From contig NZ_AP014627.1 of assembly GCF_001547895.1 (NCBI RefSeq), forward strand, positions 2,483,501 to 2,547,500: a stretch of DNA of 64,000 nt, written 5' to 3'. The notes below the pieces were generated by a model. That model saw only the letters and a list, made by a program, of their open reading frames with translations, ran no database searches and was not told the origin of the DNA. Positions 8,149-39,234 of this stretch are shown piece after piece (position 1 is the first letter of the stretch; each line of letters begins with the position of its first letter). Made by a program: the position numbers and the translations under genes. Source of the DNA: Pseudomonas sp. Os17 (GTDB lineage: Bacteria > Pseudomonadota > Gammaproteobacteria > Pseudomonadales > Pseudomonadaceae).

Positions 8149-8420
8149 TGGGGTACCTACGACTCTAAGGTTAAGTAGAGCCGCCGGTCTCGCTTCCACA
8201 CGAGAGGGTGGCAGCCGTGCGTGGGTGTGGAAGACCGGGGAGTCTTTTGGTACCCAAAACCCGGCGCACCCGAAGGTGCCCCACGCATGGCCGCCATAAC
8301 ACGTATCCGCAGGCGCAAAGCGTCGGCAGGCGCGTTGAAGCGTTGTACCTATGACCCTTCCGGACTTCCACATCCGAGCCGCTGATGGTGCAGCGACCGG
8401 GGGAGACTGCCTGACGAACA
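8149..8420 (-). promoter_or_regulatory. Structured 5' leader of the DUF6124 gene (candidate cis-acting RNA)
   Basis: Read on the minus strand, this leader contains several strong pairings. CCGGTCT (8184-8190) plus TCCACAC (8195-8201) pair with GTGTGGA (8225-8231) plus AGACCGG (8232-8238): 14 pairs with a 4-base bulge. TTTTGG (8245-8250) pairs with CCAAAA (8254-8259). GCACC (8266-8270) pairs with GGTGC (8275-8279) around a CGAA loop. In addition, bases 8249-8255 are complementary over 7 bases to 8151-8157, which lie 3-9 bases upstream of the start codon. That pairing could hide the ribosome site. Structure is seen; regulation is inferred. Confidence 0.55.
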
Positions 8421-16264: not shown

Positions 16265-17200
16265 GTGTGGCTACTTAGGGGTTTGCTCTTGTAGCGAGTG
16301 GGACGGGGTACATATCCGGTGCTGCGGTCACGGCCACTTAGGGTTTCGCCCTTACGGCGACTCACTTTTGTCAAACGACACAAAAGTAAGCAAAAAGTCT
16401 TGCCCCTCCATACGGCCCCTCGCTGGGGCTCGGGGTGCCCGAGCTCCGGCATTGCTCCGGGGGCCCGCCGCCAACCGGCCATTCATGGCCGGGCGGCGGC
16501 TAGCTCGGCATCCATGCCGAGCTGCCCCCTACGCAACGCCTACGCTCGGCCTGCTGGGAAGGGGCCGGAAGATCAAGATCAAGATCAAAAGCCAACGCCA
16601 AGGTGCGCATGCTGGTTCCCTGTAGCCGCTGCCGCAGGCTGCGAACGAGCGCTCGCGCTCGCAAAACCAGGCGGCGCGATAGGTCAGGAATATCGGGGAG
16701 GCAGGTTTAGCGTCTCCTGCGGAGCCGGTCGCAGCCTTCGGCAGCGGCTACATTAACGCGAACGGCAATGAAACAGGCCGCCGTCAGATTCTGCTTTTGA
16801 TCTTGCTTTTGATCTTCCTGCCCCCTTAGACACGATGGCCGAACGCAGGCATTGAGCCGTGGGTAACCCGGCAGGGATGCCGGGTTAGCCGCACTGGGCC
16901 ATGGATGGCCCATTGCGGCGGCCCACGGATCAATGCCGGAGTGAGGGCATGCCGAGCCTAGGCGAGGCACCGAGTGGAGGGGCAGGAGCCTTTGGTTACT
17001 TTGGGCTTTTCAAAGTGACTCGCTGTAAGAGCGAAACCGCCAGTGGCCGTGACCGCAGGAATGGATATGTACCCCCTCCCACTCGCTGTAAGAGCGGAAC
17101 CCCAAGTAGCCCTGACCGCAGCAGCGGATATGTACACAGCCCACCGCTGTAAGAGCGAAACCACCAACCGCCACACCCGCAGCAACGAATATGTACACTT
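16265..17200. repeat. Large nested inverted-repeat intergenic element
   Basis: This ~1-kb gene-free stretch is an imperfect giant palindrome. The left arm (about 16285-16410) matches the reverse complement of about 16970-17110, including shared GGTACATATCC, GCGGTCACGGCCAC and CTTACAGCGAGT-type segments. An inner pair of GATCAAGATCAA-like arms lies at 16565-16592 and 16791-16825, around a central REP palindrome. The right side carries three ~62-bp direct repeats starting CGCTGTAAGAGCG at 17021, 17084 and 17145. Short open frames here look like accidents of high GC. Confidence 0.75.
16621..16751. repeat. REP-bounded palindrome at the centre of the nested repeat
   Basis: The unit begins TGTAGCCGCTGCCGCAGGCT at 16621 and ends with its inverted counterpart, GCAGCCTTCGGCAGCGGCTACA, near 16751. 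It belongs to the TGTAGCCGCTGCCG family found elsewhere in this window but has a different core containing GAGCGCTCGCGCTCGC. Its position at the axis of the larger inverted repeat is notable. Confidence 0.75.

Positions 17201-31078: not shown

Positions 31079-31084
<6 letters not shown>
30472..31084. repeat. Four tandem REP-bounded units, period 157-160 bp
   Basis: Units begin TGTAGC(C/T)GCTGC at 30472, 30629, 30788 and 30948, and each ends GCAGCCTGCGGCAGCGGCTACA. All share a core with GGTCCGCAGGACC, GGCGATCGCCAGCC and CTGCGTCCCT(G/A)CGGGCC. The block fills the gap between the thioesterase and rtcR exactly, and both genes' stop codons fall inside its terminal TGTAGCC sequences. Confidence 0.93.
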
Positions 31085-32671
<1,587 letters not shown>

Positions 32672-32704
32672 GTTTATACCTGAAGATAAAAAGCGATAGG
32701 CAAA

Positions 32705-32718
32705 GATATAAAAATATC
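32705..32718. promoter_or_regulatory. AT-rich dyad in the rtcR-rsr intergenic region
   Basis: GATAT-AAAA-ATATC (32705-32718) is a perfect inverted repeat about 100 bases upstream of the sigma54 promoter, in a strikingly AT-rich stretch for this genome. That is the usual distance for an activator site. AT richness could also favour IHF binding. RtcR binding is inferred. Confidence 0.35.
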
Positions 32719-32817
32719 GAGGCGTTTGTCTTGTCGAATGGCCAGTGAAAAAGAGAATAAAAATAAAACCGTTATAAATCAATAAGTTAAAAAATAATTT
32801 GCTGGAAAAATAAAACC

Positions 32818-32833
32818 TGGCACAGCGGCTGCA
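32818..32833 (+). promoter_or_regulatory. Sigma54 (-24/-12) promoter of the rsr-rtcBA operon
   Basis: TGGCAC-N5-CTGCA, with the GG (32819-32820) and GC (32831-32832) elements exactly 12 bases apart, matches the RpoN consensus with one change (C for T in TTGCA). Transcription would start near 32844. That lies downstream of an in-frame ATG at 32834, which rules that codon out as the rsr start. Confidence 0.85.
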
Positions 32834-32875
32834 ATGTATCTGGCAACGAACGAGACAACAGAGCGAGACGCCAAG

Positions 32876-34426
32876 ATGGCCAACTTCCAGCTGTTCAACA
32901 CCCAACAGGCAAAAGCGCCAGCGAGCACCACCCTGAACGCTTCCAAGGCACCGGCCTATGCCTACAACGCCAAGCATCGCCTGGCCCAGCTGGCGGTCAC
33001 CGGTTGCCTGAACTCGACCTTCTACACCTCGCCTGAAGGCCAGCTGGACGCGGTGCTGCAACTGGTGAGCGAGTTGGACAGCCGCTTCGTCGCCCAGGCC
33101 GCCCGTTACGCTCGGCAGCAAGGCCATATGAAGGACATGCCGGCGCTGCTGCTGGCGGCGCTGACCGCGCAACGCTCGGCCCTGGTGCCGGAGCTGTTCG
33201 CCCAGGTGGTGGACAACGGCAAGATGCTGCGCAACTTCGTGCAGATCCTGCGCAGCGGCGTGACCGGGCGCAAATCCCTGGGGTCGCAGCCCAAGCGCCT
33301 GGTGCAGAACTGGTTGAACACGGCCAGCGAGCGTCAGCTGTTGCAGGCTTCGATCGGCACCAAGCCGTCCCTGGCGGACGTGCTGAAGATGGTTCACCCC
33401 AAGCCAAGCGATGCCTGGCGCGAAGCCTTCTTTGCCTGGGTGATCGGCAAGCCGGTGGATGTGCAGGCGTTGCCTGAGCTGACCCGCGACCTGCTGGCGT
33501 TTCGCAGCGGGGCGACACAGGAAGTGCCGCAGGTGCCGTTCCAGTTGCTCGGCAACGAGACCCTGAGCGCCGGACAATGGGCGGCACAGGCCCGCAACAT
33601 GGGCTGGCAGGGGCTGCGCATGAACCTCAACACCCTGGCGCGCCACGGCGCGTTCCAGGTGCCGGGTTGCAGCGAGTACGTGGCGGCGCGGCTGGCGGAT
33701 GCCGGTGAAGTGGCCAAGGCCCGGGTCTACCCGTACCAGTTGCTGGCGGCCTACCGCATGGCCGGCGAGGACGTGCCGCAAGCGGTCCGCGAGGCGCTGC
33801 AGGATGCCCTGGAGCTGTCCCTGGCCAACGTGCCGGCGCTGGCGGGCCACGTGGTGGTCTGCCCGGATGTCTCGGGCTCGATGCACAGCCCGGTCACCGG
33901 CTATCGCCAGGGCGCCACCACCGCGGTGCGTTGCATCGATGTGGCGGCACTGGTGGCGGCGGCGGTGTTGCGCAAGCAGCCGGCGGCGCGGGTCATGCCG
34001 TTCGAGCGGGGTGTGGTGAACATCCACCTCAACCCGCGGGACAGCGTGATGAGCAATGCACAGAAGCTGGCCAACATCGGCGGAGGCGGGACCAACTGCT
34101 CGGCGCCCCTGGCGCAGTTAGCCAACGCCAAGAGCCGCGTGGACACCCTGATCCTGGTCTCGGACAACGAGTCGTGGATCGATGCGCGGCGCCACGGCGC
34201 TACGGAAACGATGCGCCAGTGGGAGCGGATCCGGGCCATCAACCCGCAGGCGAAGCTGGTGTGCATCGATATGCAACCCGGCGCCACGACCCAGGCGCCA
34301 GACCGCGAGGACATCCTCAACGTCGGCGGCTTCAGTGATGCGGTGTTCGATGTGATCGAGCAGTTCACTGCGGGCAACTACGGTGCGCAGCACTGGGTCA
34401 AGGCAATCGAGGCGATGCCGCTCTGA
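32876..34426 (+). CDS. rsr: Rsr, Ro60-like TROVE-domain RNA-binding protein
   Basis: A 516-residue bacterial Ro60 orthologue. The N-terminal TROVE HEAT-type ring (about 20-320) includes SRFVAQAARYARQQGHMKDMPALLLAAL. A von Willebrand A domain follows, with the MIDAS DVSGS at 331-335. Ro proteins bind Y RNAs and misfolded RNAs and, in bacteria, tether Y RNA to exoribonuclease PNPase. The ATG at 32876 is used because the sigma54 promoter places the transcript start after the ATG at 32834. It is the first gene of the repair operon, directly followed by five Y-RNA-like modules. Confidence 0.95.
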   Translation: MANFQLFNTQQAKAPASTTLNASKAPAYAYNAKHRLAQLAVTGCLNSTFYTSPEGQLDAVLQLVSELDSRFVAQAARYARQQGHMKDMPALLLAALTAQRSALVPELFAQVVDNGKMLRNFVQILRSGVTGRKSLGSQPKRLVQNWLNTASERQLLQASIGTKPSLADVLKMVHPKPSDAWREAFFAWVIGKPVDVQALPELTRDLLAFRSGATQEVPQVPFQLLGNETLSAGQWAAQARNMGWQGLRMNLNTLARHGAFQVPGCSEYVAARLADAGEVAKARVYPYQLLAAYRMAGEDVPQAVREALQDALELSLANVPALAGHVVVCPDVSGSMHSPVTGYRQGATTAVRCIDVAALVAAAVLRKQPAARVMPFERGVVNIHLNPRDSVMSNAQKLANIGGGGTNCSAPLAQLANAKSRVDTLILVSDNESWIDARRHGATETMRQWERIRAINPQAKLVCIDMQPGATTQAPDREDILNVGGFSDAVFDVIEQFTAGNYGAQHWVKAIEAMPL

Positions 34427-34448
34427 TCGCTGGAACATGAGATAAACC

Positions 34449-34470
34449 GTGCGCCGGCCAGCCGGTGCAC
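34449..34470 (+). other. Hairpin between rsr and the Y-RNA array
   Basis: GTGCGCCGGC (34449-34458) pairs with GCCGGTGCAC (34461-34470), with one G-U wobble, 23 bases after the rsr stop. A run of six T follows only after nine further bases, so it is not a standard terminator. It may be a processing or partial-termination element separating the mRNA from the small RNAs. Confidence 0.45.
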
Positions 34471-34491
34471 ACCACAGATTTTTTGATCATT

Positions 34492-34549
34492 GGCCCTGAA
34501 TGCCGCTGTGACTACATCCAAAGGCGTCTCAGCAACTTTTGTCAGGGCC
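34492..34549 (+). ncRNA. Y-RNA-like module 1 (minimal, no tRNA-like part)
   Basis: GGCCCTG (34492-34498) pairs with CAGGGCC (34543-34549), closing a 58-nt RNA. It carries the array's conserved pieces: GAATGC (34498-34503) on the 5' side, ACTACA (34511-34516), and CTTTTGTC before the 3' arm. The loop lacks the T-arm and D-arm sequences of the other modules. It is probably a minimal Ro-binding Y RNA; Ro binding is inferred from position behind rsr and from the shared stem. Confidence 0.75.
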
Positions 34550-34555
34550 GGTGAG

Positions 34556-34631
34556 GGCACGAATGCCAGTGGCTGTACATCCTGGTTAAGCCGGTTCGAA
34601 TCCGGCCATCAGTCACTACTTTTGTCGTGCC
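34556..34631 (+). ncRNA. Y-RNA-like module 2 (T arm only)
   Basis: GGCACG (34556-34561) pairs with CGTGCC (34626-34631), closing 76 nt. The shared GAATGCC (34561-34567) and CTTTTGTC are present, with CTGTACA in place of ACTACA. Inside is one perfect tRNA-like T arm: GCCGG (34590-34594), loop TTCGAAT, CCGGC (34602-34606). There is no D arm. A CTTTTTT tract follows at 34633-34639. Confidence 0.78.
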
Positions 34632-34648
34632 ACCTTTTTTGCAGTTTT

Positions 34649-34779
34649 TGCGACGAATGCGGATGGAACTACATCCCAGGTTCGGGATGCGGGTTCGATT
34701 CCCGCCGGTGCTGGAAAACGGCGCCGTGGTTCAATGGTCAGAACACGAACGCATTGTTCCATCGACTCTTGTCGTCGCA
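34649..34779 (+). ncRNA. Y-RNA-like module 3 with permuted tRNA-like domain
   Basis: TGCGACG (34649-34655) pairs with CGTCGCA (34773-34779), closing 131 nt. GAATGC (34655-34660), ACTACA (34668-34673) and CTCTTGTC are conserved. A T arm, GCGGG-TTCGATT-CCCGC (34689-34705), precedes a D arm, GTTC-AATGGTCA-GAAC (34729-34744). Between them CGGTGC and GCGCCG form an acceptor-like stem joined by a loop. The order T arm, acceptor, D arm is a circular permutation of tRNA, as described for YrlA-type Y RNAs. A TCTTTTTT tract follows. Confidence 0.85.
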
Positions 34780-34803
34780 TCTTTTTTCCCGCCTCGGCGG
34801 GAT

Positions 34804-34911
34804 GGCAGCGAATGCCACGGGTACTACATTTTGTCGCGGGTTCGAGCCCCGCCAGCCGCAAGGCTGTAGCTCAGTCGGTAGAGCAAATGTGCCTGTTCCC
34901 TTGTCGCTGCC
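34804..34911 (+). ncRNA. Y-RNA-like module 4 with permuted tRNA-like domain
   Basis: GGCAGCG (34804-34810) pairs with CGCTGCC (34905-34911), closing 108 nt. GAATGCC (34810-34816), ACTACA and CCTTGTC are present. The T arm is GCGGG-TTCGAGC-CCCGC (34836-34852). The acceptor-like stem CAGCC-GCAA-GGCTG (34853-34866) is capped by a GNRA loop. The D arm is GCTC-AGTCGGTA-GAGC (34869-34884). This is the clearest tRNA mimic of the array. Confidence 0.88.
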
Positions 34912-34938
34912 CGCAGGCCTGGCCTGCACCGATTGACC

Positions 34939-35053
34939 CGGCGAATGCCGGTGGAACTACAGGACAGCGAGGTCGCGGGTTCGAGTCCCGTTCACCGCAA
35001 GGTGCTAGCTCAGAGGCAGAGCGCGCTGCATGTTCCACCTTCACTTGTCGCCG
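34939..35053 (+). ncRNA. Y-RNA-like module 5 with permuted tRNA-like domain
   Basis: CGGCG (34939-34943) pairs with CGCCG (35049-35053), closing 115 nt. GAATGCC (34943-34949), ACTACA and CACTTGTC are present. The T arm is GCGGG-TTCGAGT-CCCGT (34975-34991, one G-U). The acceptor-like stem CACC-GCAA-GGTG (34993-35004) and D arm GCTC-AGAGGCA-GAGC (35008-35022) follow. A 15-base perfect spacer palindrome (34913-34927) separates it from module 4. Confidence 0.85.
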
Positions 35054-35076
35054 TCTGTACCGAACACCGAAATTCC

Positions 35077-35140
35077 GTAGGAGCTGGCTTGCCAGCGAAG
35101 AGACCCTTGAGATCGTCTTCTGCGCCCCCGGCTCCTACAC
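35077..35140. repeat. Single REP unit between the Y-RNA array and rtcB
   Basis: GTAGGAGCTGGCTTGCCAGCG at about 35078 is paired with a distal CCGGCTCCTAC near 35129-35139. It belongs to the same family as the 111-bp array near 27.5 kb. Its stem lies inside the operon, so it could mark a processing or attenuation point between the small RNAs and rtcB. Confidence 0.8.
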
Positions 35141-35191
35141 ACCCTAATGAACAAGGCTGAATCAGCGGCCACAGGAAAAAGAGTCAACGAC

Positions 35192-36418
35192 ATGGAACAC
35201 AAAACCTACCAACTGCTGGAAGTGGCCAACGGCAAGCCGATCAAGATGTGGACCCAGGGCGTGCCCGTGGAAAACGAAGCCCGCCAGCAATTGATGAACA
35301 CCGCGAAGATGCCGTTCATCTTCAAGCACCTGGCAGTGATGCCCGACGTGCACCTGGGTAAGGGGTCGACCATCGGTAGCGTGATCCCCACCGTAGGCGC
35401 GATCATCCCGGCCGCGGTCGGGGTGGATATTGGTTGCGGAATGATCGCCGCCCGTACTTCGCTGACCGCCTCGGACCTGCCGGATAACCTGGCCGGATTG
35501 CGTAGCGCCATCGAGGCCGCGGTGCCTCACGGTCGTACTTCGCCCCGTAGCGGTCGCGATAAGGGCGCCTGGGGTGATGTGCCGCAGCAGACCGACCAGG
35601 CCTGGGCTGCGCTGCACCCGCGCTTCAAGGCGATCACCGATAAGTACCCGGCCCTGGCCAACAGCAACAACCGCCAGCACCTGGGAACCCTCGGCGGCGG
35701 TAACCACTTCATCGAGGTTTGCCTGGATGAAGCCAACCGGGTCTGGTTCATGCTGCACAGCGGTTCCCGTGGCGTAGGTAACGCCATCGGCAACCTGTTC
35801 ATTCATCTGGCACAGGCCGATATGCGTCAACATATCGCCAACCTGCCGGATCGTGACCTGGCCTACTTCGAGGAAGGCAGCCAACACTTCGACGATTACG
35901 TGGAAGCCGTGGCCTGGGCCCAGGATTTCGCCCGGCAGAACCGTGAGCTGATGATGCAACTGGTGATCCAGGCCACCCGCAAGGTGATCAGCAAGCCCTT
36001 CGAGGTGGCGCTGGAGGCCGTCAACTGCCACCACAACTACGTGCAGAAGGAGCGCCACTTCGGTGAAGAGGTGCTGGTGACCCGCAAGGGCGCGGTGTCG
36101 GCGAAGAAGGGCGAGCTGGGGATCATTCCGGGGTCGATGGGGGCCAAGAGCTTCATCGTTCGCGGGCTGGGTAACGAGGAGGCGTTCTGCTCCTGCAGCC
36201 ACGGCGCGGGGCGTACCATGAGCCGCACCAAGGCCAAGAACACCTTCACCCTGGCCGACCAGATCCGCGCGACCGCTCATGTGGAGTGCCGTAAGGACGA
36301 AGCGGTGATCGACGAAATCCCGATGGCCTACAAGGACATCGACCAAGTGATGCACGCCCAGCGCGAGCTGGTGGAAGTGCTGCACACCCTGCGTCAGGTG
36401 GTGTGCGTTAAGGGGTAG
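35192..36418 (+). CDS. rtcB: RtcB, GTP-dependent RNA ligase
   Basis: Joins RNA 2',3'-cyclic phosphate or 3'-phosphate ends to 5'-OH ends. The 408-residue length equals the E. coli enzyme. Metal and guanylate-site motifs are present: VGVDIGCGM (77-84) with Cys82, GGGNHFIE (168-175), and the guanylylated His337 in CSCSHGAGR. The ATG at 35192 is used because residues from MEHKTYQLLE align with the family; an upstream in-frame ATG at 35147 has no ribosome site. Four bases separate it from the next gene. Confidence 0.97.
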   Translation: MEHKTYQLLEVANGKPIKMWTQGVPVENEARQQLMNTAKMPFIFKHLAVMPDVHLGKGSTIGSVIPTVGAIIPAAVGVDIGCGMIAARTSLTASDLPDNLAGLRSAIEAAVPHGRTSPRSGRDKGAWGDVPQQTDQAWAALHPRFKAITDKYPALANSNNRQHLGTLGGGNHFIEVCLDEANRVWFMLHSGSRGVGNAIGNLFIHLAQADMRQHIANLPDRDLAYFEEGSQHFDDYVEAVAWAQDFARQNRELMMQLVIQATRKVISKPFEVALEAVNCHHNYVQKERHFGEEVLVTRKGAVSAKKGELGIIPGSMGAKSFIVRGLGNEEAFCSCSHGAGRTMSRTKAKNTFTLADQIRATAHVECRKDEAVIDEIPMAYKDIDQVMHAQRELVEVLHTLRQVVCVKG

Positions 36419-37766: not shown

Positions 37767-37784
37767 AAAATGGAGAGCGCCTTT

Positions 37785-38429
37785 ATGCAGCCGCGGCCAC
37801 TGTTGACCCGAATAGAAGATGAACACTGCCGCGCGCTACGCCAGCAACTGAAGGAGGTGTATTGCGTCTTCGATTTTGTGCTGCTGGCGGTCGAACCCGA
37901 GGCGGTGGTGGATCAAGCCCTGCATCGCCAGGGCTTGCAGCACCTCTACCAGCACTTGATGGCCGAACGCCGCGAGCGCTGGGAGCAACTGCGCCAGGAC
38001 CCGCGCTACGCCGACGTCGGCCTGACGTCGATGCGCTGGGAGCAGGAGCGGGCGGTGCCCGAGGCGCTCAGTCAGGAGCAGGTCCGGCAGTTGGTCTGCG
38101 AAAACCTGGAGCAGCAGGAGCTGGCCTTGTACCGGGCGTTTCGCCAGCCGCCATACGGGCTGCATTTCCCCGGCGGCGCCGAGCAGGCGCGGCAGGTGTA
38201 CGGCCAATGGCTGGACCTGCTGGGGCTGGACCCCGAACAGCAGCCCCAGGTGATCAACTGGGTAGGCAACCTGGAACTGGACTGTCAGGCGCCGGACATG
38301 GGCCCGCACCTGCAGCCCTGGAGTGACTATTTCGACGAAGGCCTGGAGTGGTGGGGCGTCTGGTGCCTGACGGTGTGGAACCCCGTGCGTCGGACCCTGA
38401 GTGTGCTGGCTGCCAGCGCCACCGATTGA
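37785..38429 (+). CDS. Conserved-looking protein of unknown function in the RNA repair operon
   Basis: A 214-residue protein I do not recognise. The N-terminus is helical and charged (TRIEDEHCRALRQQLKEVYCVFDFVLLAVEPEAVVDQALHRQGLQHLYQ). A middle helical section follows (QEQVRQLVCENLEQQELALYRAF). The C-terminus is rich in aromatics (WSDYFDEGLEWWGVWCLTVWNPVRRTLSVLAAS). No signal peptide or membrane span is visible. The ATG at 37785 has GGAG nine bases upstream; an ATG at 37770 lacks a ribosome site. Gaps to neighbours are 18 and 16 bases, consistent with one operon. Confidence 0.75.
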   Translation: MQPRPLLTRIEDEHCRALRQQLKEVYCVFDFVLLAVEPEAVVDQALHRQGLQHLYQHLMAERRERWEQLRQDPRYADVGLTSMRWEQERAVPEALSQEQVRQLVCENLEQQELALYRAFRQPPYGLHFPGGAEQARQVYGQWLDLLGLDPEQQPQVINWVGNLELDCQAPDMGPHLQPWSDYFDEGLEWWGVWCLTVWNPVRRTLSVLAASATD

Positions 38430-38445: not shown

Positions 38446-39234
38446 ATGGAACACCTGGAGCGTCATCCCCTGAGCAGCGCCATGCGTGAGCGGGTATTGG
38501 CCGAGCTGGCGCGGATCGAGCGCGAGCGCAATGTGCAGGTGCTGTACGCCTGCGAATCCGGCAGTCGGGCCTGGGGCTTTGCCTCCACCGACAGTGATTA
38601 CGACGTGCGTTTCGTCTACGTGGAAAAGCCCGAATGGTTCATCCAGGTGGAGGCCGGGCGCGACGTGATCGAACGTCCCCTGGACGACGAGCTGGACATC
38701 AGCGGCTGGGAACTGCGCAAGACCCTCGGGCTGTTGCGCAAGTCCAACCCGACCCTGCTGGAATGGCTGGATTCGCCCCTGGTGTATCGCAGCGAAGCGG
38801 CCGCCACCGCGCGCTTGCGGGAGCTGGCGGAGGCGTTCTACAGCCCGCCGGCGGCGCGCAATCATTATCTGTCGATGGCCAAGAAGAACTTTCGCGGTTA
38901 CCTGCAAGGCGACAGCGTGCGTTTCAAGAAGTACTTCTACGTACTACGGCCCTTGCTCGCGGTGCGCTGGATCGATCAAGGCCGCGGCCGACCGCCGATG
39001 ACCTTCGCCGACCTGCTGACCACGGTCGACCACCCACCGCTGCTGGACGAAGTGGCCGAGCTGCTGGCCTTGAAACGCAGCGCCGAGGAGTCCGCCTACG
39101 GGCCGCGACGCCCGGCACTGCACGCCTTTATCGCCGCCGAGCTGGAACGCCCGGTGCCGAAACTGGCGCGCACCCATGAAGACAATGCGTTGCTGGACGC
39201 CTACCTGCGGGAAACGGTCCGGCACTACGCCTGA
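38446..39234 (+). CDS. RlaP-type (RNA-ligase-associated) nucleotidyltransferase
   Basis: A 262-residue polymerase-beta-superfamily nucleotidyltransferase. The catalytic signature is ESGSRAWGFASTDSDYDVRFVYV, with GS at 39-40 and the metal-binding Asp51/Asp53. KPEWF and LRKSNPTLLEWLDSPLVYR are typical of the YcgL/RlaP family (PF10127 as I recall). The family is associated with RNA ligase operons and is predicted to add nucleotides to RNA ends. It sits eight bases before rtcA, supporting a role in end processing of damaged RNA. Confidence 0.88.
   Translation: MEHLERHPLSSAMRERVLAELARIERERNVQVLYACESGSRAWGFASTDSDYDVRFVYVEKPEWFIQVEAGRDVIERPLDDELDISGWELRKTLGLLRKSNPTLLEWLDSPLVYRSEAAATARLRELAEAFYSPPAARNHYLSMAKKNFRGYLQGDSVRFKKYFYVLRPLLAVRWIDQGRGRPPMTFADLLTTVDHPPLLDEVAELLALKRSAEESAYGPRRPALHAFIAAELERPVPKLARTHEDNALLDAYLRETVRHYA

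What the first reader, a model, noticed from the sequence alone, without database searches (positions are those of the whole stretch)
34492..35053. Five tandem Y-RNA-like modules between rsr and rtcB
Five consecutive segments (34492-34549, 34556-34631, 34649-34779, 34804-34911, 34939-35053) are each closed by a perfect terminal stem of different sequence (GGCCCTG, GGCACG, TGCGACG, GGCAGCG, CGGCG with their complements). The 5' side always runs into GAATGC and the 3' side always comes from (C)TTGTC. Four carry ACTACA about 8-13 bases after GAATGC (the second has CTGTACA). Covarying stems with fixed flanks are strong evidence for real RNAs. Known bacterial Ro loci typically have one or two Y RNAs; five in a row on one transcript is unusual to my knowledge.
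Basis: partly seen in the sequence, partly recalled or inferred. Interest (0 to 1): 0.92.

Follow-up and report, generated by a model that had tools for sequence, protein, structure and literature searches.

The report
Five-unit Y RNA array in Pseudomonas
Between a Ro60-like protein gene and an RNA-repair gene this bacterium carries five different Y RNA-like units in a row, two of them not recognised by the standard RNA library, and in the related loci examined such arrays are usual rather than exceptional.

Summary
Five modules, each a terminal stem + GAAUGC/UUGUC internal loop + inner stem, lie between rsr and rtcB; 5,000 shuffles of the region gave at most one. Modules 4 and 5 are YrlA above the Rfam cut-off, module 3 just below. 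Module 1 is a 58-nt core without tRNA-like part (like Salmonella YrlB); module 2 keeps only a T-arm; Rfam finds neither. These two are the best-kept: found in 45 and 46 of 46 Pseudomonas loci, while the tRNA-mimic modules are gone in three that keep an open rsr. Modules 1 and 2 covary.

'Five is unusual' fails: by the descriptor all 80 named rsr loci carry 2-8 modules, 29 of them five or more; at a cut-off without a single false hit, 20 of 80. Best reading: one RtcR/sigma54 operon yields Rsr plus Y RNAs sharing an Rsr-binding core but differing in effector domain: bare gates, half mimics, full tRNA mimics. A third module also follows YrlA in a Salmonella-like locus whose operon is published with two. 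Chen 2014 and Sim 2020 were not readable, so priority is open.

The parts
31079..32668 (-). rtcR, sigma54-dependent activator, divergent from rsr
   Evidence: Pfam RtcR 279 bits, Sigma54_activat 167.1 bits
32818..32832 (+). candidate sigma54-type site TGGCAC-N5-CTGC upstream of rsr
   Evidence: pattern search: 2 matches in the window, 1.1 expected by chance; position and the Salmonella precedent (PMC9879122, passages) make it likely
32876..34426 (+). rsr, Ro60 orthologue (516 aa)
   Evidence: Pfam vWA_Ro60 79.3 bits, TROVE 23.4; D. radiodurans Rsr 2nvo E 4.8e-27
34449..34470 (+). hairpin in the leader between rsr and module 1
   Evidence: fold of the intergenic region; leader folds of relatives
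34492..34549 (+). module 1: 58-nt core-only Y RNA-like module (YrlB-like), no tRNA-like part
   Evidence: fold z -3.35; 45 of 46 Pseudomonas loci; covariation; model R1
34556..34631 (+). module 2: 76-nt Y RNA-like module with a T-arm only; signature GGCTGTACA...CAG
   Evidence: fold z -2.75; 46 of 46 Pseudomonas loci; covariation; TGTACA signature in second place also in Chitinimonas, Parachitinimonas, Andreprevotia
34635..34640 (+). U-run in the linker after module 2
   Evidence: sequence; T-run statistics
34649..34779 (+). module 3: YrlA-like, T-arm and D-arm
   Evidence: YrlA 62.9 bits, below the cut-off of 69; R1 46.0 bits; fold z -3.55
34788..34801 (+). G+C-rich hairpin in linker 3-4, preceded by a U-run at 34782-34787
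   Evidence: sequence; linker folds
34804..34911 (+). module 4: YrlA, T-arm and D-arm
   Evidence: YrlA 71.7 bits, above the cut-off; R1 37.0 bits; fold z -3.38
34913..34927 (+). G+C-rich hairpin in linker 4-5
   Evidence: sequence; linker folds
34939..35053 (+). module 5: YrlA, T-arm and D-arm
   Evidence: YrlA 74.1 bits, above the cut-off; fold z only -1.54
35192..36418 (+). rtcB RNA ligase
   Evidence: Pfam RtcB 443.8 bits
36423..37766 (+). HEAT-repeat protein, presumably of the same operon
   Evidence: Pfam HEAT_2 49.7 bits
37770..38429 (+). 219-aa protein, no Pfam match
38446..39234 (+). RlaP, RNA-repair-associated DNA-polymerase-beta-family protein
   Evidence: Pfam RlaP 321.9 bits
39243..40289 (+). 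rtcA RNA 3'-terminal phosphate cyclase
   Evidence: Pfam RTC 272.5 bits

Best explanation
The region encodes five bacterial Y RNAs transcribed with rsr and rtcB from the RtcR/sigma54 promoter. Each has the same presumed Rsr-binding core (terminal stem, GAAUGC/UUGUC internal loop, inner stem with UACA at its tip). They differ in what hangs on the core: nothing (module 1), a T-arm (module 2), or T-arm plus D-arm tRNA mimic (modules 3-5). Inferred: the modules are freed from the transcript at the linkers and each binds one Rsr ring; core-only and half-mimic forms act as gates that occupy the Y site without recruiting a partner, while the full tRNA mimics also tether Rsr to PNPase, as described for Deinococcus and Salmonella. 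The mix would set how much Rsr is shut, free or nuclease-coupled while tRNA damage keeps RtcR active. Shown here: module identity, conservation, covariation (modules 1 and 2), place between rsr and rtcB. Inferred: transcription, processing, Rsr binding, division of labour.
For: 5 modules against at most 1 in 5,000 shuffles. YrlA above cut-off for modules 4 and 5. Model R1, from Pseudomonas module 1 only, gives 82 matches at E up to 1 in the window and 35 loci outside Pseudomonas, 81 of 82 on the rsr strand, window modules 1, 3 and 4 among them, and finds Salmonella YrlB at E 0.0007. Covariation. Arrays beside rsr in 80 of 80 named loci by the descriptor; array wholly between rsr and rtcB in 77 of 80, in 4 of these with rtcB 423-1,651 bases further on; the other 3 have no rtcB in the stretch held. 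YrlA of 44.9 bits or more in 26 of the 27 Pseudomonas genomes with rsr and in none of the other 271 of 298 (capped candidates and stricter filters). Between the window and L007 modules differ at 51 of 488 sites, leader plus tail at 75 of 178. Effector parts come and go on a constant core: both hairpins of module 2 are lost in L018 and L060. Rsr binds the lower stem, Y RNA as gate and recruiter: PMC4726728 (passages); PNPase tethering and tRNA mimicry: PMC8394870 (passages).
Against: No RNA data. R1 did not report window modules 2 and 5. In a thermodynamic fold of the whole intergenic region the terminal stems of modules 1, 2 and 4 form (0.98-0.99) but those of 3 and 5 do not (0.04, 0.01). Module 5 alone folds little better than shuffles (z -1.54). 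Terminal stems of modules 3-5 give no covariation test in Pseudomonas. The inner linkers are about as conserved as the modules (window against L007: 7 of 67 sites), so conservation does not single out the modules from their linkers. The gate-only role of core-only modules has no direct evidence here.
Confidence: 0.62

Rival explanations
1. The array stays one RNA and works as a scaffold: several Rsr rings bind the cores of one unprocessed transcript, giving a multi-ring particle tethered to PNPase through the distal tRNA mimics.
For: Modules are close-packed (modules 1 and 2 are 3-8 bases apart in the Pseudomonas loci printed) and lie on one strand between rsr and rtcB. The inner linkers are conserved too.
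Against: Salmonella YrlA and YrlB are named as separate noncoding RNAs in the papers seen (PMC9879122, passages). Linkers are U-rich and some carry hairpins, as expected of cutting or end-protection sites: T-runs of 4 or more in 35% of 233 stretches after non-last modules against 1.7% of 1,693 stretches inside modules.
Confidence: 0.12
2. The modules are a cis-acting element of the operon mRNA: bound by Rsr they feed back on rsr/rtcB mRNA stability or translation.
For: Position after rsr and before rtcB in 77 of 80 loci. In genome G107 rsr is in two pieces, one with a stop, but five modules are kept, which would fit a role for the downstream genes.
Against: In three viral contigs the modules lie upstream of rsr; in L051 and L052 two modules lie about 580 bases beyond the main cluster. 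The passages read describe bacterial Y RNAs as RNAs bound to Rsr, not as mRNA elements.
Confidence: 0.1
3. The modules are decoys: the tRNA-like parts compete for the anticodon nucleases or other tRNA enzymes active during tRNA damage, or tune the RtcR signal.
For: T-loop and D-arm sequences in modules 3-5; Hughes et al. raise YrlA as a possible competitive inhibitor of the nuclease (PMC7790460, passages).
Against: Module 1 has no tRNA-like part and module 2 half of one, yet they are the most widely kept; three loci have kept only these two.
Confidence: 0.1
4. Decaying tandem duplicates of YrlA or tRNA-derived repeats without function.
For: Modules share a core, and the tRNA-like parts are missing in module 1 and partial in module 2.
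Against: Positional orthologues with their own signatures across the genus, covariation, lower divergence than leader and tail.
Confidence: 0.03

Closest known systems
YrlA (Rfam RF02553), bacterial Y RNA with tRNA-like domain
   Same: Modules 4 and 5 above the family cut-off, module 3 just below; same core, T-arm, D-arm and place beside rsr
   Different: Three copies of different sequence in one locus, accompanied by two modules that the family model does not find
YrlB (Rfam RF02565), short Salmonella Y RNA
   Same: Module 1 has the same plan (core only) and the same place, first after rsr; model R1 from Pseudomonas module 1 finds Salmonella YrlB at E 0.0007
   Different: The Rfam YrlB model (cut-off 97 bits) does not find module 1 even at E up to 1
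[quoted passage not shown]
   Same: rtcR divergent, sigma54 promoter, rsr - Y RNAs - rtcB ... rtcA (PMC7790460 and PMC9879122, passages)
   Different: Five Y modules instead of two named ones; HEAT, 219-aa and RlaP genes between rtcB and rtcA
Deinococcus radiodurans Rsr / Y RNA / PNPase machine (RYPER)
   Same: Ro60 orthologue with Y RNA as gate and tether (PMC4726728, PMC8394870, passages)
   Different: Its locus was not examined here; that it is not beside rtcB is recalled only

Membership tests
YrlA (RF02553), modules 4 and 5 | Score at or above the Rfam cut-off (69 bits) | tested here: met
   71.7 and 74.1 bits
YrlA (RF02553), modules 1, 2 and 3 | Score at or above the Rfam cut-off (69 bits) | tested here: not met
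   module 3 62.9 bits; modules 1 and 2 no match up to E 1
YrlA (RF02553) | tRNA-like domain with T-arm and D-arm | tested here: met
   met by modules 3, 4 and 5; module 2 has the T-arm only, module 1 neither
YrlA (RF02553) | Encoded beside an rsr gene | tested here: met
   rsr directly upstream
YrlA (RF02553) | Binds Rsr and PNPase; carries dihydrouridine and pseudouridine | not testable with these tools
   needs biochemistry
YrlB (RF02565) | Score at or above the Rfam cut-off (97 bits) | tested here: not met
   no match of any window module up to E 1, so module 1 is called YrlB-like, not a member of RF02565
YrlB (RF02565) | Short core-only Y RNA, first after rsr | tested here: met
   module 1 against L128:725-790; R1 bridges the two at E 0.0007
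Bacterial Y RNA in general | Terminal stem with GAAUGC/UUGUC internal loop and inner stem, beside a Ro60 gene (features as seen in YrlA and YrlB here) | tested here: met
   all five modules, 43-47 points against a cut-off of 28
Bacterial Y RNA in general | Stable small RNA whose level depends on Rsr | not testable with these tools
   needs northern blots or RNA-seq with and without rsr

The most novel reading that the evidence does not exclude
Ro60 in these bacteria works with a repertoire of Y RNAs, not one: a kept set of core-only gates and half mimics (modules 1 and 2) is the constant part in Pseudomonas, and the tRNA mimic on which the field has concentrated is the replaceable part, since three Pseudomonas loci have lost it and keep an open rsr. 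Library models miss most modules at their cut-offs, and even the Salmonella operon may hold an overlooked third Y RNA after YrlA.
Probability: 0.4. Interest if true: 0.75.

Novelty: new variant of a known kind. Interest (0 to 1): 0.52.

Why it matters
What bacterial Ro60 and its RNAs do in RNA repair is open. A natural series in one operon, from bare core to full tRNA mimic, lets the gate and tether roles be separated by deleting single modules, and species that lost the tRNA mimics are ready-made controls. It also suggests that Rfam undercounts bacterial Y RNAs: at default cut-offs it reports 2 of 5 modules here.

Tried and rejected
YrlA hits in Pseudomonas genomes without rsr: G009, G104 and G129 (42.0, 42.9 and 36.6 bits) coincide with tandem tRNA genes (tRNA-Arg beside an undetermined tRNA twice, two tRNA-Gly once), and the fetched stretch of G239 (33.2 bits) holds four tRNA genes; none holds a module by the descriptor. 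Other low hits were not looked at.

'Short modules first, long last' looked like a rule in the 80 named loci (first shorter than last in 76 of 80) but holds in only 2 of 8 of the phylum sample (L114-L121): a feature of some lineages.

Three distant Rsr relatives (25-28% identity, L122-L124, about 1.5 kb on each side held) and Myxococcus phage Mx1 (L130, 3 kb on each side) have no module by the descriptor.

Two short 'phage' records (L128, L164) looked like two species with an identical Y region; they are identical in rsr too and differ only in rtcB (87 of 531), so one is probably a chimera and gives no evidence of selection.

Whole-region folding does not favour modules 3 and 5. No sigma70 promoter or terminator was found in 32600-35300. 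Orthology labels rest on a simple score; the first module of L054 was set to module 1 by hand, and the third module of the fluorescens group (labelled M4) may be M5.

Full report
WHERE. The window lies in a 6.885-Mb single-contig genome whose Rsr is 100% identical to that of Pseudomonas protegens FD6 (L039). The order is rtcR (minus strand), then on the plus strand rsr, the five modules, rtcB, a HEAT-repeat protein, a 219-aa protein without Pfam match, RlaP and rtcA. A sigma54-type site lies at 32818-32832 (1.1 such matches expected by chance in the window).

THE OBSERVATION. A scored version, written after looking at relatives, gives the five 43-47 points; its cut-off of 28 is passed 3 times in 736,498 bases of the other strand of the 80 named loci and 0 times in 180,000 shuffled bases, and 6 times on the rsr strand outside the arrays, highest 36. 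Folding energies are lower than in shuffles with z = -3.35, -2.75, -3.55, -3.38 and -1.54 for modules 1-5.

WHAT THEY ARE. Rfam reports YrlA for modules 4 and 5 above the cut-off (71.7 and 74.1 of 69 bits) and module 3 at 62.9 bits. Modules 1 and 2 have no match up to E = 1. Module 1 is a bare core of 58 nt, module 2 carries a T-arm, modules 3-5 a T-arm followed by a D-arm, the order of the YrlA model. Module 1 orthologues (42 rows, 31 distinct, Pseudomonas) pair in 95.2% of cells and have 68 double-changed cells (shuffled mean 17.8, 0 of 500 as high), covariation score 0.423 (shuffled 0.142, 0 of 500; best slid version 0.110). For module 2 (41 rows, 37 distinct) the values are 99.3%, 40 (10.3) and 0.212 (0.103; best slid 0.087). 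Two of the five measures are not clearly above shuffles: pairs with a double change (36 and 223 of 500 as high) and further pair types (72 and 500 of 500). For modules 3-5 the terminal stems hardly vary in Pseudomonas (3, 4 and 11 distinct stems; 0, 1 and 0 double changes): no test there.

A LINK BETWEEN THE MODULES. A covariance model of module 1 from Pseudomonas alone (R1), searched in the window and 35 loci outside Pseudomonas, gave 82 matches at E up to 1, 81 of them on the rsr strand; in the window it finds modules 1 (72.4 bits, in the seed), 3 (46.0) and 4 (37.0), not 2 and 5. In a second set of 17 loci it finds, among 18 matches at E up to 0.5, Salmonella YrlB at E = 0.0007 and modules of the viral contigs.

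FIVE IS NOT UNUSUAL. In 80 named rsr loci (the best 80 of 116 found; 45 of them Pseudomonas, so not independent) the descriptor finds arrays of 2 (10 loci), 3 (30), 4 (11), 5 (24), 6 (2), 7 (1) and 8 (2) modules within 1.7 kb after rsr, 309 modules in all; at cut-off 37, which no hit outside an array reaches, 283 modules remain and sizes are 0:1, 1:2, 2:14, 3:26, 4:17, 5:16, 6:1, 7:3. A phylum sample of 398 genomes had 13 with an Rsr match; besides the window's own genome and one Pseudomonas, 8 are full-length relatives of 54-63% identity with 5, 4, 5, 7, 5, 3, 4 and 3 modules, and 3 are distant (25-28%) with none. A class sample of 369 genomes gave two more intact loci, with 4 and 3 modules, and a broken rsr fragment with none. 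In the family of G386 (395 genomes searched, 33 with a match) the 30 loci fetched carry 2-5 (L162 repeats the genome of L121). A Rhizobium etli plasmid locus carries 5. Of 298 Pseudomonas genomes 27 have an rsr match.

WHICH MODULES ARE KEPT. In 46 Pseudomonas loci (window included) module 2 is found in 46 and module 1 in 45 (one, in L054, labelled by position); the exception, L027, shows a recognisable module 1 with a poor terminal stem in its leader. Modules labelled 3, 4 and 5 are found in 21, 33 and 28. None of these is found in L008, L010 and L020; there a piece of about 30 nt resembling the 5' end of a tRNA-mimic module stands before rtcB. Rfam finds no YrlA in these three up to E = 0.5, while it does in two controls, L013 (73.6 bits) and L021 (52.2), and their rsr frames are open over the matched length (514-516 codons). 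The genome that matches L010 by contig coordinates (G016) has no YrlA match above tRNA level (28.5 bits listed), whereas the other 26 rsr genomes of the sample have one of 44.9 bits or more and the other 271 genomes have none (stricter filters, 12 candidates scored a genome). From memory, the abstract of Chen et al. 2014 says that at least one Y RNA in each species has a tRNA-like domain; these three loci would be exceptions, but the paper was not held.

THE EFFECTOR PARTS TURN OVER. Module 2 has a T-arm-like hairpin plus a second hairpin in many Pseudomonas, T-arm only in the protegens group, a changed loop in the fluorescens group, and neither in L018 and L060, where the pair 1-2 is also duplicated. 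L031 has a T-arm inside module 1. The core stays: GGCTGTACA and CAG are invariant columns of the module 2 alignment. The TGTACA signature at position 2 recurs in Chitinimonas, Parachitinimonas and Andreprevotia (L042, L043, L047, L059), so the layout is older than the genus or travelled with the operon.

LINKERS. T-runs of 4 or more occur within 14 nt after 35% of 233 non-last modules, after 23% of 81 last modules and before 38% of 314 modules, against 1.7% of 1,693 stretches inside modules. Hairpins of differing sequence stand in the leader and in the linkers 3-4 and 4-5 of many Pseudomonas loci printed. This suits cutting between modules and protected ends, but no terminator was called in 32600-35300. 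Against neat folding: in the whole intergenic region the terminal stems of modules 1, 2 and 4 form with 0.98-0.99 and those of 3 and 5 with 0.04 and 0.01.

SELECTION. Five close relatives were compared. In the most diverged, L007, modules 1-5 differ from the window at 3/58, 8/76, 21/131, 4/108 and 15/115 sites (51 of 488), the leader at 19/64 and the tail before rtcB at 56/114, but the three inner linkers at only 7 of 67. The closest, L004, shows 13 of 488 in modules against 15 of 201 in leader plus tail.

A SALMONELLA LEAD. Record OR851267.1 (L128), a 2.2-kb unverified contig from a phage preparation on Salmonella Kentucky, holds rsr and rtcB ends. Rfam finds YrlB at 719-796 (105.5 bits) and YrlA at 800-918 (70.9 bits), plus a sub-threshold YrlA match at 924-1037 (31.7 bits, E 0.0046); the descriptor gives that third module 35 points, within the range of the best false hit (36), but it folds with a 6-bp terminal stem, a 9-bp inner stem and a T-arm (z -2.62). 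The papers seen name two Y RNAs there (PMC7790460, PMC9879122, PMC4987338; passages). No genome known to be Salmonella was reached, so this is a lead.

HOW IT PROBABLY WORKS. From passages: Rsr binds the lower stem of bacterial Y RNAs, and Deinococcus Y RNA gates substrate access and recruits exonucleases (PMC4726728); [quoted passage not shown] 5' tRNA fragments ending in a cyclic phosphate bind RtcR (PMC7790460). Put together: tRNA damage switches the operon on and yields Rsr with a mixed set of Y RNAs. Inference: full mimics couple Rsr to PNPase, core-only and half-mimic forms only occupy the ring. The constancy of modules 1 and 2 suggests that, in Pseudomonas, the gate is the part that is not given up.

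NOVELTY. Five paper searches on bacterial Y RNAs, one on TROVE/RtcB and one on Salmonella sRNAs were made in the held library; I saw the listings and passages of seven papers and no description of arrays of five or of core-only modules in Pseudomonas in them. The specialist papers are not in that library. I therefore rate it a new variant of a known kind, with real doubt whether the array has been listed before.

Noticed in passing
L128:925-1033 (OR851267.1): A third Y RNA-like module between YrlA and rtcB in a Salmonella-like locus whose published operon names only yrlB and yrlA; folds with z -2.62.
   Followed up: partly
L008, L010, L020 (Pseudomonas sp. Irchel s3h14, P. pharyngis, P. sputi), before rtcB: The tRNA-mimic module is reduced to a 5' remnant of about 30 nt while an open rsr and modules 1 and 2 are kept.
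   Followed up: partly
L107/L108 (genome G107): rsr is in two pieces, one with a stop codon, but five modules are still there.
   Followed up: no
L125, L126, L127 (viral contigs): Viral rsr relatives of 44-48% identity have two modules upstream instead of downstream of the gene.
   Followed up: no
L050, L051, L052, L067: Undibacterium, a Burkholderiales MAG and Massilia carry runs of five or six short (57-80 nt) modules before longer ones; in Massilia two types appear to alternate.
   Followed up: no
L109 (G009) and L111 (G129): A tRNA-Arg beside an undetermined tRNA-like gene between similar genes in two Pseudomonas genomes without rsr; they score 42.0 and 36.6 bits with the YrlA model.
   Followed up: partly
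window 8204-8301 (-) and 16461-16944: Rfam C4 antisense RNA and two TwoAYGGAY RNA matches elsewhere in the window.
   Followed up: no
window 37770-38429: A 219-aa protein with no Pfam match sits between the HEAT protein and RlaP in the RNA repair gene cluster.
   Followed up: no
L164 against L128: Two short records filed as phages are identical over rsr and the Y region but differ at 87 of 531 bases in rtcB, so one is probably a chimeric assembly.
   Followed up: yes
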